In this document: in pieces, positions 4,282 to 20,478 of the stretch
Layout: each line of letters begins with the position of its first letter
Position numbering within the stretch: position 1 is the first letter of the stretch
Source of the DNA: a virus
DNA: 24,290 nt
IMG/VR virus record: IMGVR_UViG_3300030202_000025
Span: 1-24,290 of that record
Strand: one strand, 5' to 3'
Notes under the pieces: generated by a model
The model's database searches: none
The model's input: the letters and a program-made list of their open reading frames with translations, nothing else
What the model was told of the DNA's origin: nothing
Position numbers and translations under genes: made by a program

Positions 4282-5108
4282 GTAGTGAAACAAACCAGGT
4301 AGCAACGGAACAACCAAGTACGTTGTCTGCGGAAACACCAGTAACACCAGAAACAGTAAGTACAGATTGGAAAGCCAGTTTGTCGGAAGAAATAAGAGCA
4401 GATAAATCTTTAGAAAATATTAAAGATATAGAAGGTTTAGCAAAATCTTATGTTCATGCACAAAAATTAGTTGGCTCGGATAAAATCCCAGTACCTAATA
4501 AATATGCAACAGAACAAGATTGGGATGCTGTTTACGAAAAATTAGGCAGACCCGCAGACGCTGAAGGGTATAAATATGATTTACCAGAAGATCAGCAAAT
4601 AGATGCTGAAGCGTTAAAGAGTTTTTCAAGTCAAGCGCATAAGTTAGGATTACTTCCTGGCCAGGCGAATGGCATGGTAAAATTTTATAATGAAATGACA
4701 AGTGCTGCAATGCAAGAACTAGATACAAAAGCAACAGCAGCAAGAGAAGCTAGCTCTACTGAACTTAAAAAAGAGTGGGGTCAAGCATTCGATCAAAAAG
4801 TAACACAAGCTGCAAATCTTGCTAAATCAGTTGGCGCAACAGAATTGTTTAACGCTAACATGGCAGATGGAACCAAACTTGGAGACCATCCAATTATGAT
4901 TAAAGCATTTGCAGAGTTAGCGGGCAAGATGGGAGAGGATACAATTACTCAATCATCTGGGCCAGTTTTCCAAACACCAGAACAAATAGAAAAAGAAATT
5001 GGAGAACTAACTATGCCAGGTTCAGCGTATTGGGATAAACATCATCCTAACCACCAGGCAGCTATTGCAGAAGTTTTGGCTTTACGAGAAAAGAAAAATC
5101 AAGTATAG
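4278..5108 (+). CDS. Capsid assembly scaffolding protein
   Basis: This 276-residue acidic, helix-rich protein has an N-terminus of Ser/Thr/Glu/Pro low complexity. A conserved block follows: DWKASLSEEIRADKSLENIK (about 29-48), GLAKSYVHAQKLVGSDKIPV, then an EQDWDAVYEKLGRPADAEGY segment. This matches scaffold proteins found between portal and coat in podophages. It would form the internal core that directs prohead assembly and then leave the particle. The ATGA overlap with the upstream gene (4278-4281) and a GGAGG at 4269-4273 support the start. The C-terminal HPNHQAAIAEVLALREKK helix fits the coat-binding end usual for scaffolds, which is inference. Confidence 0.88.
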   Translation: MSSETNQVATEQPSTLSAETPVTPETVSTDWKASLSEEIRADKSLENIKDIEGLAKSYVHAQKLVGSDKIPVPNKYATEQDWDAVYEKLGRPADAEGYKYDLPEDQQIDAEALKSFSSQAHKLGLLPGQANGMVKFYNEMTSAAMQELDTKATAAREASSTELKKEWGQAFDQKVTQAANLAKSVGATELFNANMADGTKLGDHPIMIKAFAELAGKMGEDTITQSSGPVFQTPEQIEKEIGELTMPGSAYWDKHHPNHQAAIAEVLALREKKNQV

Positions 5109-5249
5109 CTCAAAATACTAGGATAATCGCAAGACCCTAGTTGACATTAGGAAAAGACTAACATCTACAAGATGTAAAACCTAGGTTTAGACCCGCAAGG
5201 ATAATCAGCCGTTTAACATTAACATAAACCAAGAAAAAAGGAGAATAGT
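5109..5249 (+). promoter_or_regulatory. Structured leader in front of the capsid gene
   Basis: This 141-base gap is the longest non-coding stretch in the window and holds several elements. A stem ACTAGG/CCTAGT pairs 5117-5122 with 5136-5141. A perfect 6-bp hairpin ACATCT-ACA-AGATGT lies at 5161-5175. A 12-bp palindrome AAACCTAGGTTT lies at 5177-5188. A consensus-like -35 hexamer TTGACA (5141-5146) has only a weak -10 match (TCTACA, 5164-5169) at 17-base spacing. The words GATAATC, GCAAG and ACCC occur twice in reversed order (5122-5137 and 5191-5206). AAGGAG at 5238-5243 is the capsid ribosome binding site. Together these suggest a promoter, processing site or stabilising 5' leader for the most highly expressed gene. 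Confidence 0.45.
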
Positions 5250-6125
5250 ATGTCTATTCAAATTACTACTTCTTTTGTAGAGCAGTATAGTTCAAATGTA
5301 ACTATGCTTTCTCAACAAATGGGAAGTAAATTAAGAGGTTCTGTTGATGTGGAGACTATTAATGGTAAAAACGCTTTCTTCGATCAAGTCGGAGTTACAG
5401 CTGCTCAAATAAGAACGAGCAGACATGGCGATACACCACAAATAGACACGCCTCACAGCAGAAGAAGATTGAGCTTGGCAGATTATGAGTGGGCTGATTT
5501 AGTTGACGATGTCGACAAAGTTAGAATGCTTATAGATCCAACAAGTTCTTACGCAAAAGCAGCAGCATCTGCTATGAACAGAAGTATTGACGATGTAATT
5601 ATTACAGCGATGAATGCGTCTGCTTCAACTGGTGTAGCTGGTGGTACATCTACGGCTTTACCTTCAACGCAAAAAACAGCAACTTCAGACCAATCAGATG
5701 GTTTGACTATTGCTAAACTTTTGTCTGCGAAGAAAATCATGGATGATAACGATGTAGATCCTTCATTGAAGAGATTTATCGTTTGTGGGCCACAACAAAT
5801 ATCAGATCTATTAGGAACAACTTCAGTTACAAGTGCTGACTTTAATACAGTTAGAGCTTTATCAACTGGAGAAGTTAATTCATTCCTAGGATTTGAATTT
5901 ATAATGTCAACAAGACTGAACAAGGATGCAACTAATACTACTGACAGATTAGTTTTTGCTTATACTGAAGATGCTATTAAACTTGGCATGGGAAAAGATA
6001 TATCTGCAAAAATCTCTGAAAGAGCTGACAAGTCTTACTCAACACAAGTGTACTATTGTATGTCACTAGGTGCTGTAAGAATGGAAGAGAAAAAAGTTGT
6101 TCAAATCCCTTGTCACGAAGCATAA
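5250..6125 (+). CDS. Major capsid protein
   Basis: This 291-residue protein has the sequence pattern of a podophage coat family (I recall it as Pfam Phage_capsid_2, HK97-like fold). Typical segments are ITTSFVEQYSSNVTMLSQQ at the N-terminus, GSKLRGSV, NGKNAFFDQVG (about 39-49), then SRHGDTPQIDTPHSRRRLSL and YEWADLVDDVDKVRMLIDPTS. It forms the icosahedral shell. It follows the scaffold gene and a structured 141-base leader, with AAGGAG 6 bases upstream of the ATG. There is no sign of a frameshifted longer form: the frame ends cleanly at 6125 and the next gene has its own strong Shine-Dalgarno. Confidence 0.93.
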   Translation: MSIQITTSFVEQYSSNVTMLSQQMGSKLRGSVDVETINGKNAFFDQVGVTAAQIRTSRHGDTPQIDTPHSRRRLSLADYEWADLVDDVDKVRMLIDPTSSYAKAAASAMNRSIDDVIITAMNASASTGVAGGTSTALPSTQKTATSDQSDGLTIAKLLSAKKIMDDNDVDPSLKRFIVCGPQQISDLLGTTSVTSADFNTVRALSTGEVNSFLGFEFIMSTRLNKDATNTTDRLVFAYTEDAIKLGMGKDISAKISERADKSYSTQVYYCMSLGAVRMEEKKVVQIPCHEA

Positions 6126-6140
6126 TAGGAGGATAGAAAT

Positions 6141-6620
6141 ATGGGAACTAAAAATACTGATCTAGTAGCAAATTTCGAAGCGTCTCCTTCAGTTGCTAAC
6201 AACTCTGCTGAATTACATGGCGTTTTAAGAACAGCTCATGGAACTGTGGAATTAGCATCTGGCGATAGTGATGATAACGATATTGTTATGTTAGCACCAA
6301 TCCCAAGTAACGCTGCTGTACCAAGTTTATTTATTGGTTCAGACACACTTGGCGGTTCGTGTACTTTCAATGTAGGGATATACACTTCAGCTGGCGTAGT
6401 TAAAGACGAAGATGTATTTGCAACTCTAGTAGCTGATGCTGCTGGAATGGCGGATGTTCGTTTTGAAGCTGCTAATATAGATACAGCTGGAAAAAAGATG
6501 TGGGAATTAGCTGGAGACAGCTCTGATCCAGGAGGATATTACTATGTAGCAGCTACAATGGCTGCTGATGGTCAAACTGCTGGAACTATGTCTTGGAACA
6601 TTTCATACGTTGTAAATTAA
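6141..6620 (+). CDS. Probable capsid decoration / minor head protein
   Basis: This 159-residue acidic, Ala/Gly/Asp-rich protein has a predicted all-beta character, with alternating short hydrophobic strands and small residues (for example CTFNVGIYTSAG and TMSWNISYVVN). It has no signal peptide or membrane span. It lies 15 bases downstream of the coat gene behind AGGAGGA (6127-6133). This is the usual place and size of an outer-surface decoration protein. I cannot place it in a named family, so the function is from context. A GC-rich hairpin follows 13 bases after its stop, perhaps bounding a highly expressed coat-decoration transcript segment. Confidence 0.6.
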   Translation: MGTKNTDLVANFEASPSVANNSAELHGVLRTAHGTVELASGDSDDNDIVMLAPIPSNAAVPSLFIGSDTLGGSCTFNVGIYTSAGVVKDEDVFATLVADAAGMADVRFEAANIDTAGKKMWELAGDSSDPGGYYYVAATMAADGQTAGTMSWNISYVVN

Positions 6621-6633
6621 TACAATAAAATTT

Positions 6634-6665
6634 TAGGCGGGGGAAGCGAGAGTGGATCCCGCCTA
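6634..6665 (+). promoter_or_regulatory. GC-rich hairpin between the decoration gene and the next small gene
   Basis: TAGGCGGG (6634-6641) pairs perfectly with CCCGCCTA (6658-6665) around a 16-base purine-rich loop. It is the strongest short stem I found in this AT-rich window. No T-tract follows it, so it is not a standard factor-independent terminator. It ends 6 bases before the ATG of the next gene, in the region where a ribosome binding site should lie. It could stabilise the upstream capsid mRNA end, act as an RNase processing site, or restrict translation of the gene at 6672. Confidence 0.6.
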
Positions 6666-6671
6666 GAGTGC

Positions 6672-6899
6672 ATGACAAAGATCGATAAACCAAAACTTGT
6701 ATTACACTTTAAGAGTGGCAATCATATTTACCGATATGTTTTAGTTGATCGATTTAAACACGATACAAAAAACCATAATGGTTTTGATACCAAACAAGAA
6801 TTAACTGAAGCAGAAATATTTGCTTTGGTTACACCAAGAAAGTTAAGACGTAAATACATAACCAAAAAGGAAGAAAATGGCAAAAGTAACAAAAAGTAA
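6672..6899 (+). CDS. Small basic hypothetical protein
   Basis: This 75-residue protein begins MTKIDKPKLVLHFKSGNH, has a strand-like middle (YRYVLVDRFK) and ends in a very basic tail (KLRRKYITKKEENGKSNKK). I do not recognise a family. The ATG follows a GC-rich hairpin by 6 bases and lacks a clear Shine-Dalgarno, so its translation may be low or dependent on RNA folding. The 3' end overlaps the next gene by 23 bases. It sits in the head-completion to tail-tube interval, where small adaptor proteins occur, but no role can be assigned. Confidence 0.6.
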   Translation: MTKIDKPKLVLHFKSGNHIYRYVLVDRFKHDTKNHNGFDTKQELTEAEIFALVTPRKLRRKYITKKEENGKSNKK

Positions 6900-7008
6900 A
6901 CCAAAACCAAAAAATAAAAAATTAGCAGCGATGTATGGTAATAAAAATAAAATTACTAGAGGCGATATTATTACAGCAGCTAAAAGAAATAATAGGAGAA
7001 CAGCATAA
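6877..7008 (+). CDS. 43-residue Lys-rich small protein
   Basis: A short frame starts at ATG 6877 behind AAGGAAG (6867-6873 region) and ends TAA 7006-7008. The product is 43 residues: a Lys/Pro tract (VTKSKPKPKNKKLAAMYG), then NKITRGDIITAAKRNNRRTA. It is extremely basic, with no hydrophobic segment. It overlaps the upstream gene by 23 bases in another frame and overlaps the next start by one base (TAATG). The good ribosome binding site and the coupling at both ends argue that it is real. The charge suggests contact with DNA or RNA, which is inference. I do not recognise a family. Confidence 0.6.
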   Translation: MAKVTKSKPKPKNKKLAAMYGNKNKITRGDIITAAKRNNRRTA

Positions 7009-7160: not shown

Positions 7161-7742
7161 ATGGCATCAGTAATTCAAATTTGTAATTCAGCTCTTAATC
7201 AATTAGGAGCTGGATCAATTACAGCTCTTACAGAAAATTCTAAAAACGCTAGATTGTGTAATGAAAGATACCAAACAGTTAGAGACGCTGTTTATAGATC
7301 TCATCCTTGGAATTGTTTAATTAAAAGAGTTCAATTAGCGCAAGATAGTAATACTCCAGCTTGGGGTTTTACTTTTCAATATACATTACCTTCAGATTGT
7401 TTGCGTGTACTACAAATTAAAGATTACGATGCAGATTATAAAATTGAAGGAAGAAAATTATTAATAAACATAAGCGAAGTTTATTTACTTTATTCAGCAC
7501 AAATTACCGATGTCAATGAATTAGATGTTTTATTAAGAGAAACTATATCTGCGGGTTTAGCTTCAGATATTGCTTATGCTATTACTTCTAATTTACAAGT
7601 TGCAAAACTTATGACAGAAAAATATGGTTTAAAATTATCAGAAGCAAGACATACAGACGCTAGCGAAGGATATAACACAGATCCAACTCTAGGAAATACA
7701 GATCAAATAATAACAGAAGATTTCTTAAACAGTAGATTATAG
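7161..7742 (+). CDS. Tail tubular protein A (T7 gp11-like adaptor)
   Basis: This 193-residue protein carries the recognisable pattern of podophage gatekeeper/adaptor proteins: ICNSALNQLGAGSITALTE (about 7-25), NARLCNERYQTVRDAVYRSHPWNC (29-52) and a LPSDCLRVLQI segment near 75. These proteins form a ring under the portal and the upper part of the short tail. The start follows the preceding TAG directly and has no obvious Shine-Dalgarno, so coupling to the upstream small gene is likely. The next gene begins three bases after its stop and encodes the partner tubular protein B. Confidence 0.9.
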   Translation: MASVIQICNSALNQLGAGSITALTENSKNARLCNERYQTVRDAVYRSHPWNCLIKRVQLAQDSNTPAWGFTFQYTLPSDCLRVLQIKDYDADYKIEGRKLLINISEVYLLYSAQITDVNELDVLLRETISAGLASDIAYAITSNLQVAKLMTEKYGLKLSEARHTDASEGYNTDPTLGNTDQIITEDFLNSRL

Positions 7743-18531: not shown

Positions 18532-20478
18532 ATGACGATAAGCACAACAACTATTTTAAATTCTTATAGTGGTAACGGATCCACAACTGCGTTTGCGTAC
18601 ACGTTTCCAATAAATACAACATCTGAAATATCAGTAATTGAGAGATCTGCTACTGGAACAGAGACAGTTAAATCTGAAGGAACTGGATCAACAAACTATG
18701 GTATAGCTGACAATGGATCTGCGGGTGGAACTATTACTATGGTTACAGCTCCCGCATCTGGTACTACTTTACTAATTAGACGTAATACAGATTTTACGCA
18801 AGAAACTGATTATGTAGCAAACGATCCATTTCCAGCAGAAACTCACGAAGATGCTTTGGATAAACTTCAAATGCAAACACAAGAGCTTGAAGAAGAATTA
18901 AATAGATCATTAAAAATTTCAAGAACAAACTCTATGACAAGCACAGAGTTTACTACTTCTGCTTCTGATAGAGCTTCTAAAGTTTTAGCATTTGATAGTT
19001 CTGGAGAATTATCTGTAACCCAAGAATTAGGTACTTTTAAAGGTAACTCTGCAACTACTACTACGGCAGCTTTTGTAAAAAGAGATATTATTAAAGCAAC
19101 TACAACAGCTCAATTAAATAATATTTATATTTGTGTAGCAGATAGTGTTATTGGAGATACTTTAACAGACACAGATCATTTTGAACTTTTAGTTGACGCT
19201 GTTTCAGCAGCAACTTCAGCAACGACAGCTACCACTAAAGCTACTGCCGCTGCTTCATCTGCAACAGCTGCCGCTAGTTCAGCTTCAACCGCTTCTACAC
19301 AAGCAAGCAACGCATCATCTTCAGCGACAGCTGCGGCTTCTTCTGCAACAGCTGCGGCTAACTCCGCTGATGCTTTTGACGATGTTTATTTAGGAACTAA
19401 ATCTTCTGATCCAAGTACAGATAATGATGGCGATGCTTTAGCAGAAGGTATGCTTTATTTTAATTCTACAAGTGATAGTTTACGTGTTTACAATGGTTCG
19501 TCTTTTCAAGATGCAGCTGTTGATACGACATCTTTTTTAACACTTACTGGAACACAAACATTAACAAATAAAACTCTTACAGCTCCTAAAATTGGTACTT
19601 CTATTTTAGATACTGGTGGAAATGAGTTGGCTAAATTAACAGCTACTGGTTCAGCAGTAAATGAATTTACAATTGCAAATGCTGCATCAAGTGGTAGTCC
19701 AACTTTATCAGCAACTGGTGGAGATAGTAATATTGATTTAGATTTATTAGCTAAAGGTACTGGTCATGTAACCATAAGAGGTAATACTAATCCTGGTGTC
19801 TTACAATTAAACTGTGAAGCTAATACACATGGTCAACAAATAAAATCACAACCTCATTCAACAAATACAACAAATATTATGTTGTTACCAGCTGGTGCTA
19901 GTTCAACTTTAGTATCTTTGGTTTCAACAGATACACTTACTAATAAAACTTTAACATCTCCTAAAATAAATGAAGATGTTGCTGTAACTTCTACTGCTAC
20001 AGAATTAAACAAACTAACTGGTGCAACTGTAGTTGTTGGAGAACTTAATGCTTTAGATTTAGGAAGCACAGCGATTGGAACTGCAATAGCAAGTAAAGCT
20101 GTAGTTTTAGATGCTAACAAAGATTATACTGGAATAAGAAGGTTAGATGTAACGAGAGCAAACATTGCTCAAGTAGCATTATCATCATCGTCAAATGCTG
20201 TAGCTTGGGATGCTGCTGTTGCACCAAACGCTTATCATATAACAACAGAAAATACGACTTTCTCTGCTCCAACTAATAATGTTGAAGGTGCGTTTATTTG
20301 CATTGAGATAAATTACAACGGATCGCACACTATTGCTTTTAATACTATATTCAATTTTGCTGCTGATACTGCTCCAACATTTACATCTACTGATGCAAAA
20401 ACCGATATATTAGTTTTCCGTTTTAATGGAGCTGTATATCAAGAAGTTGGAAGAACATTAAACATAAGTGAGGCTTAA
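18532..20478 (+). CDS. Tail fibre protein with T7 gp17-type N-terminal attachment domain
   Basis: This 648-residue protein has residues 1-~145 that match the T7 tail fibre N-terminal domain: ILNSYSGNGSTTAFAYTFPI, then TLLIRRNTDFTQETDYV and DPFPAETHEDALDKLQMQTQ. This region fixes fibres to the tail. A low-complexity Ala/Ser/Thr stretch (~224-282) follows and could form a flexible or helical shaft. Next comes a beta-rich part with two copies of TLTNKTLT(A/S)PKI (about 343-354 and 468-479) and a KGTGHVTIRGN segment. The C-terminus is short, with no obvious intramolecular chaperone. The start lacks a Shine-Dalgarno and follows a hairpin/T-run gap. It should bind the host surface, and its specificity is unknown. 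Confidence 0.9.
   Translation: MTISTTTILNSYSGNGSTTAFAYTFPINTTSEISVIERSATGTETVKSEGTGSTNYGIADNGSAGGTITMVTAPASGTTLLIRRNTDFTQETDYVANDPFPAETHEDALDKLQMQTQELEEELNRSLKISRTNSMTSTEFTTSASDRASKVLAFDSSGELSVTQELGTFKGNSATTTTAAFVKRDIIKATTTAQLNNIYICVADSVIGDTLTDTDHFELLVDAVSAATSATTATTKATAAASSATAAASSASTASTQASNASSSATAAASSATAAANSADAFDDVYLGTKSSDPSTDNDGDALAEGMLYFNSTSDSLRVYNGSSFQDAAVDTTSFLTLTGTQTLTNKTLTAPKIGTSILDTGGNELAKLTATGSAVNEFTIANAASSGSPTLSATGGDSNIDLDLLAKGTGHVTIRGNTNPGVLQLNCEANTHGQQIKSQPHSTNTTNIMLLPAGASSTLVSLVSTDTLTNKTLTSPKINEDVAVTSTATELNKLTGATVVVGELNALDLGSTAIGTAIASKAVVLDANKDYTGIRRLDVTRANIAQVALSSSSNAVAWDAAVAPNAYHITTENTTFSAPTNNVEGAFICIEINYNGSHTIAFNTIFNFAADTAPTFTSTDAKTDILVFRFNGAVYQEVGRTLNISEA
19201..19376 (+). repeat. 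Ala/Ser/Thr-rich low-complexity repeat inside the fibre gene
   Basis: The region encodes about 58 residues that are almost entirely Ala, Ser and Thr, with repeated units of the form SATAAASSA. The DNA repeats a GCAACAGCTGC(G/C)GCT-type block three times or more (near 19260, 19325 and 19346). Repeats of this type sit between the attachment domain and the shaft of many podophage fibres. They are prone to copy-number change by slippage or recombination. Confidence 0.75.

What the first reader, a model, noticed from the sequence alone, without database searches (positions are those of the whole stretch)
6634..6674. Strong GC hairpin without a T-tract directly before a start codon
TAGGCGGG/CCCGCCTA is the most stable short stem noticed in the window. 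It ends only 6 bases before the ATG of the 6672 gene, which lacks a normal ribosome site. It may protect the 3' end of the coat-decoration mRNA, be an RNase III-type site, or limit translation of the next gene.
Basis: seen in the sequence. Interest (0 to 1): 0.5.

Follow-up and report, generated by a model that had tools for sequence, protein, structure and literature searches.

The report
Capsid mRNA end hairpin, ocean phages
Right after the coat genes of an ocean phage lies a strongly conserved RNA hairpin that looks like the end marker and protector of the coat-protein message, but it lacks the run of T that normally makes such hairpins transcription stops.

Summary
The hairpin is real: a 13-bp stem (6630-6642 with 6657-6669) capped by GAA-GC(GAGA)GU-GGA, the most stable local hairpin on the + strand. 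The window is an HTVC010P-like SAR11 phage. In 73 of 73 readable relatives (7 of 80 dropped) and 9 of 9 named phages, a hairpin sits at the same place, behind the last capsid gene. Its stem covaries strongly, and G-U pairs point to + strand RNA. It stays where the following 75-aa gene is missing. The same caps recur on other stems in unrelated phages: after the MCP of T7-like pelagiphages and after a gene next to primase in HTVC023P-type phages. At that spot cyanophage loci carry a canonical T-tract terminator (69 of 74) and HTVC010P-like loci do not (0 of 73), although SAR11-like genomes mostly pair strong gene-end hairpins with T-tracts (8 of 11). Best reading: a 3'-end-defining, mRNA-protecting boundary between high-demand and low-demand genes; U-independent termination is the main rival. 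No function was measured. No Rfam match. New variant of a known kind, testable in existing RNA-seq.

The parts
6630..6642 (+). 5' arm of the stem (ATTTTAGGCGGGG)
6643..6656 (+). apical cap: 3x3 purine internal loop GAA/GGA, two pairs GC/GU, GAGA (GNRA) tetraloop
6657..6669 (+). 3' arm of the stem (TCCCGCCTAGAGT); no T-tract follows
5250..6125 (+). major capsid protein gene
   Evidence: phrog_3437 major head protein, E 7.6e-93
6141..6620 (+). putative decoration or other virion protein, upstream of the hairpin; its stop codon ends 9 nt before the stem
   Evidence: no PHROG for the window's own protein; a homologue in L134 matches 'virion structural protein' families weakly, E about 5e-4; the role is an inference
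6672..6899 (+). 75-aa ORF of unknown function directly after the hairpin; no PHROG, no Shine-Dalgarno
7161..7742 (+). tail tubular protein A-like gene, downstream
   Evidence: phrog_394 tail protein, E 5.4e-52; tail tubular A by synteny with HTVC035P and Lederberg
5118..5211 (+). conserved structured 5' leader of the MCP gene (approximate limits); with the 3' hairpin it brackets the capsid genes. Whether both act together is unknown
   Evidence: no Rfam match up to E 10

Best explanation
The hairpin is an RNA element of the + strand that marks and protects the 3' end of the capsid (MCP plus putative decoration) message in SAR11 phages. SHOWN: it is a real, covarying stem-loop of the sense RNA; it sits 8-14 nt behind the last capsid stop codon in nearly all relatives read; it carries one of a few recurring caps; it lacks a U-tract; strong ribosome sites lie before MCP and the decoration ORF and none before the next genes in this window. 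INFERRED: transcripts end here, or are trimmed back to here by 3'->5' exonucleases that the stable capped stem blocks, so the capsid segment of the operon outlives or outnumbers the tail-protein segment. This would set the high capsid to low tail protein ratio, as the intercistronic hairpin of the Rhodobacter puf operon does. The cap may help by resisting unfolding or by binding a host factor.
For: Same position in 73 of 73 readable relatives and, by eye, 9 of 9 named phages, four of which lack the decoration gene and carry the hairpin directly behind MCP. Covariation score 0.619 against 0.189 +/- 0.019 in shuffles (0 of 500) and at most 0.168 when slid; all 12 outer pairs have both-side changes; cap-B set 0.528 against 0.161. 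G-U 137 against A-C 18 at pairs 1-12 of 101 distinct cap-A hairpins; the + strand fold is the more stable in 71 of 71 cap-A and 51 of 57 cap-B hairpins. The same caps occur behind other genes expected to be needed in quantity: the MCP of T7-like pelagiphages, and a phrog_2402 protein of unknown function next to primase. The same spot holds a T-tract hairpin in 69 of 74 cyanophage loci, and in LUZ100 an apparent strong terminator immediately downstream of MCP is reported (PMC10134795, passages), so this site is an MCP mRNA end. SAR11-like genomes pair strong gene-end hairpins with T-tracts in 8 of 11 cases, so the T-less phage form is probably not the ordinary intrinsic terminator. puf precedent: PMC11354728, passages.
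Against: No RNA data were seen. HTVC010P itself has CC-TTTTT after its stem, and 14 of 77 Pelagivirus loci have a T-run of 5 or more, so some members look like ordinary terminators. 3 of 11 strong host gene-end hairpins also lack a T-run. HTVC023P has no hairpin behind its phrog_2402 homologue. The conserved 4x4 internal loop costs stability, which pure protection would not explain. Copy numbers of the proteins are inferred from their roles.
Confidence: 0.5

Rival explanations
1. A U-independent transcription terminator: the GC stem itself, perhaps with its cap, makes RNA polymerase stop, fully or in part, after the capsid genes, without a U-tract, possibly with Rho or another factor.
For: The orthologous position is a T-tract terminator in 69 of 74 cyanophage loci, and P-SCSP2, CRP-114 and LUZ100 have T-tracts there; LUZ100 is reported to have an apparent strong terminator there. 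Stems are stronger where the T-tract is missing (mean -19.6 against -12.6 kcal/mol). HTVC010P and 14 of 77 Pelagivirus loci keep T-runs.
Against: SAR11-like genomes use T-tracts at 8 of 11 strong gene-end hairpins; a conserved cap is not a known need of termination (recalled); hairpins occur in phages with their own polymerase (Autographiviridae records) and in Skadi, which is reported to have none (PMC10504331, passages), so one polymerase-specific signal is unlikely.
Confidence: 0.27
2. The cap is a dedicated protein-binding site (phage or host protein), and the stem only presents it; binding controls decay, termination or packaging of the message.
For: Invariant caps on changing stems in unrelated phage groups; one variant (HTVC027P, GAA-GG(GAGA)CU-GGA) swaps C-G for G-C inside the cap.
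Against: At the orthologous site in close relatives the cap is exchanged for another or for a plain GNRA loop (A 55, B 12, GNRA 3, TGAAATAT type 3 of 73), so no single ligand is needed. The pattern scans required the exact cap, so cap invariance in those sets is partly by construction.
Confidence: 0.2
3. An RNase III-type processing site that cuts the late message between capsid and tail genes, as in T7.
For: A stem of 13 bp interrupted by an internal loop; T7 late mRNA is cut by RNase III (recalled).
Against: Many homologous hairpins have only 6-9 uninterrupted pairs; the variable stems show no conserved cutting region.
Confidence: 0.07
4. A translational brake on the 75-aa gene that starts 2 bases after the stem.
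For: The ATG at 6672 directly follows the stem and has no Shine-Dalgarno.
Against: 20 of 66 relatives lack such an ORF by the automatic criterion and keep the hairpin; in cap-B phages the next ATG lies further off (median 32 nt from the start of the cap).
Confidence: 0.04

Closest known systems
Intercistronic mRNA-stabilising hairpin of the Rhodobacter puf operon (PMC11354728, passages; details recalled)
   Same: A strong hairpin behind high-demand genes inside an operon of an alphaproteobacterial system, before lower-demand genes.
   Different: A phage element; a recurring cap; effect on mRNA stability not measured here.
Post-MCP terminator of T7-like phages (T7 T-phi, recalled; LUZ100)
   Same: The same place: directly behind the major capsid gene and before tail tubular A.
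   Different: No T-tract in 73 of 73 HTVC010P-like loci (T-run of 5 or more); conserved cap; HTVC010P-like phages without own polymerase, by the Skadi paper.
T4 intercistronic C(UUCG)G hairpins (recalled; no paper seen)
   Same: Recurrent capped hairpins between phage genes with variable stems; HTVC027P has one such CUUCGG cap behind gp62.
Structured RNAs of Pelagibacter ubique (Meyer et al. 2009, PMC2704228, passages)
   Same: One host motif is a conserved single bulged hairpin, about half of whose examples are followed by poly-U.
   Different: Host motifs upstream or near host genes; no Rfam family matched the phage hairpin.

Membership tests
Rho-independent (intrinsic) terminator | GC-rich stem-loop in the sense RNA | tested here: met
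Rho-independent (intrinsic) terminator | U-tract directly after the stem | tested here: not met
   absent in the window; T-run of 5 or more in 0 of 73 relatives; 2 of 73 have 5 T in 8. The type phage HTVC010P does have five T
Rho-independent (intrinsic) terminator | transcripts end there | not testable with these tools
   no RNA data held
Intercistronic mRNA-stabilising hairpin (puf-like) | stable hairpin between high-demand and low-demand genes of one strand | tested here: met
   position between MCP/decoration and tail tubular A; demand is inferred from gene roles
Intercistronic mRNA-stabilising hairpin (puf-like) | upstream segment decays more slowly because of the hairpin | not testable with these tools
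   needs half-life measurements
T4-type CUUCGG intercistronic hairpin | C(UUCG)G cap | tested here: not met
RNase III processing site (T7 type) | about two turns of duplex and cutting by RNase III | tested here: inconclusive
   13 bp plus 2 bp in the window, shorter in many relatives; cutting not testable
Any Rfam 15 family | match to a covariance model | tested here: not met
   no gathering hit in the window; in 6400-6900 up to E 5 one hit, a Tetrahymena snoRNA model at E 4.3 that does not cover the hairpin

The most novel reading that the evidence does not exclude
SAR11 phages share a small vocabulary of RNA caps (GAGA on two pairs above a GAA/GGA or AGC/UAA internal loop, and GAUU-AACAC(A/U)GAC-AAUC), exchanged between unrelated phages, that bind one host factor and turn any GC stem into a U-tract-free end signal for the most needed phage messages: a new class of phage mRNA end element.
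Probability: 0.25. Interest if true: 0.75.

Novelty: new variant of a known kind. Interest (0 to 1): 0.58.

Why it matters
HTVC010P-like phages are described as very abundant marine viruses, yet how they set the ratio of capsid to tail proteins is unknown; for the related phage Skadi the authors state that they could not identify any terminator sequence (PMC10504331, passages). This hairpin supplies a concrete, conserved candidate at the right place, shows that the cap, not only the stem, is kept, and gives a prediction that deposited directional RNA-seq can test at once. If the caps recruit a host factor, they would show how streamlined marine bacteria end or stabilise messages without a U-tract.

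Tried and rejected
Chance: rejected. Exact cap-A matches in genome contigs, where about this many are expected by chance, have a flanking stem of >=6 bp in 6 of 118 places, against 103 of 120 (cap A) and 96 of 119 (cap B) in viral contigs.

DNA element or - strand RNA: rejected, because G-U pairs outnumber A-C and the + strand folds better. Cap-B hairpins have 11 C-A mismatches at the pair next to the cap, and 6 of 57 fold no better on the + strand.

Known RNA family: none. Host origin of the cap: no match of caps A, B or C in 400 kb of three SAR11-like genomes; this is a part of those genomes only.

Variant cap GNAAGGGAGACTGGA (from HTVC027P): mostly chance in viral contigs, stem >=6 bp in 11 of 120.

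Selection told: A1 (41 rows) came from 44 thinned representatives; L001 was replaced by the window and L088, L090, L104 were left out by hand; A2 (42 rows) left out L232 and L248 of 44. Both lists had first been filtered for at least 5 of the first 6 pairs (101 of 117 distinct cap-A and 78 of 98 cap-B places passed). This raises the share of paired cells; no tree-based control was made. 7 of 80 loci (L009, L034, L039, L047, L049, L050, L073) were dropped, because no second ORF of 90 aa or more was found after MCP.

The 5' leader is less stable than I expected as a plain fold (z -0.66, 48 of 200 shuffles as good), although its pairs covary.

Papers: PMC12753301 outline, abstract, sections 12 and 21 and passages; PMC10504331, PMC10134795, PMC11354728, PMC2704228, PMC2965389, PMC8632094 passages only; others listings only. 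Searches for print mention of this hairpin: pelagiphage+hairpin (2 papers, listing only), cap letters anywhere (0 papers), structured-RNA and capsid terms (0 papers, and a listing); these cover only the open-licence library.

Full report
What it is. The window holds the late genes of an HTVC010P-like pelagiphage: terminase, head-tail adaptor, major capsid protein (5250-6125), a 159-aa ORF (6141-6620), the hairpin, a 75-aa ORF (6672-6899), two short ORFs, and tail tubular protein genes. It is a virus record of 24290 bases. It is the strongest local hairpin of the + strand.

Conservation in relatives. 80 loci with a related capsid gene were fetched (best 80 of more). In 73 the second ORF could be read, and a hairpin follows it in all 73, mean -19.6 kcal/mol, the stem starting 8-14 nt after the stop in 72 of 73. 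Caps: A 55, B 12, short GNRA 3, TGAAATAT type 3. Of nine named phages read (HTVC035P, Lederberg, HTVC010P, Greip, HTVC203P, HTVC024P, HTVC100P, Skadi-10, HTVC204P), all nine have a hairpin by eye at this boundary; Greip, HTVC024P, HTVC100P and HTVC204P have no second ORF and carry it directly behind MCP. 46 of 66 relatives with enough sequence have an ORF of 55 aa or more starting right behind the hairpin and 20 do not by the automatic criterion. So the hairpin belongs to the end of the capsid genes, not to the next gene.

Structure and strand. In 41 distinct cap-A hairpins all 12 outer pairs show changes on both sides; covariation score 0.619 against 0.189 +/- 0.019 in shuffles and at most 0.168 for slid partners. 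42 cap-B hairpins: 0.528 against 0.161 +/- 0.017, at most 0.167 slid. The two inner pairs never vary in these sets, because the cap letters were the search pattern; the HTVC027P form GAA-GG(GAGA)CU-GGA shows an exchange there. G-U outnumbers A-C 137 to 18 over pairs 1-12 in 101 cap-A hairpins, and 41 to 11 over pairs 1-8 in 78 cap-B hairpins.

Recurrence. Of 248 places with such a stem and a readable upstream ORF, 101 follow HTVC010P-like decoration/capsid ORFs, 99 a protein whose representative is phrog_2402 (unknown function), 23 a T7-like MCP, and 25 other genes, among them an Hsp20 and a baseplate hub gene. These counts include the loci and may count one contig twice. A third cap, GATTAACAC.GACAATC, has a stem of at least 6 bp in 108 of 120 stretches and follows an MCP in 82 of 101 with an upstream ORF. 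HTVC027P has further T-less hairpins behind gp03, gp35, its capsid gene gp59 and gp62, the last with a UUCG cap. HTVC023P has none behind its phrog_2402 homologue.

U-tract. At the post-MCP site, a T-run of 5 or more goes with 69 of 74 cyanophage hairpins, 14 of 77 Pelagivirus hairpins and 0 of 73 HTVC010P-like hairpins. P-SCSP2, CRP-114 and LUZ100 have T-tracts there; HTVC011P, 019P, 022P, 025P and Jormungand do not. HTVC010P itself has five T. In 353 gene ends of three SAR11-like genomes, 11 hairpins of -16 kcal/mol or better lie within 40 nt of the stop, 8 with a T-run. The LUZ100 paper reports an apparent strong terminator immediately downstream of MCP.

Reading. The site is the 3' end of the capsid message in this broad group of phages. 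In SAR11 phages the end element is a stronger stem with a conserved cap and usually no U-tract. With host terminators mostly carrying U-tracts, I prefer 3'-end protection and an expression boundary (0.5) over U-independent termination (0.27); the two can act together. Strong Shine-Dalgarno sequences before 5250 and 6141 and none before 6672, 7161 and 7745 fit an expression step at this point. None of the functional steps was measured.

Second element. The 5' leader of MCP (about 5118-5211) is itself a conserved structured RNA: 19 pairs, 95% of cells paired, 10 pairs with both-side changes, covariation score 0.475 against 0.169 +/- 0.018; no Rfam match up to E 10. Its plain folding energy is not unusual (z -0.66). 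The measure 'further pair types' does not exceed its shuffles (397 of 500). It may be a partner of the 3' hairpin; that is not tested.

Literature. I found no description of this hairpin in the library searched; the Skadi paper says that no terminator sequences could be identified.

Noticed in passing
window 5105-5249 (core about 5118-5211), + strand: The 5' leader of the MCP gene is a conserved, covarying structured RNA in HTVC010P-like phages (19 pairs, score 0.475 against 0.169). By eye GG-AUAA-UC with GACC occurs twice, the second time with the other end closed, like a circularly permuted copy. No Rfam match.
   Followed up: partly
L619 (HTVC027P) 1831-1860, 19229-19261, 34963-34989, 36123-36144: Four T-less hairpins 8-15 nt behind gp03, gp35, capsid gp59 and gp62, each with a different cap, one UUCG.
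   Followed up: partly
L209-L327, cap-B loci: A second small inverted repeat (such as TTCC-ATTCCGGTT-GGAA) often lies just upstream of the GC hairpin behind the phrog_2402 gene, so the element there may be two-part (by eye).
   Followed up: no
L115 1300-1350: Two cap-A hairpins in tandem, 38 nt apart.
   Followed up: no
L447 (HTVC011P) 2449-2560: Two different hairpins in tandem behind MCP, one with a GG(GAGA)CU cap and one with the GATTAACACAGACAATC cap.
   Followed up: no
window 18532-20478: Repetitive alanine-rich-coding stretches near 19205-19359 make several strong hairpins inside a large ORF; probably codon repeats.
   Followed up: no
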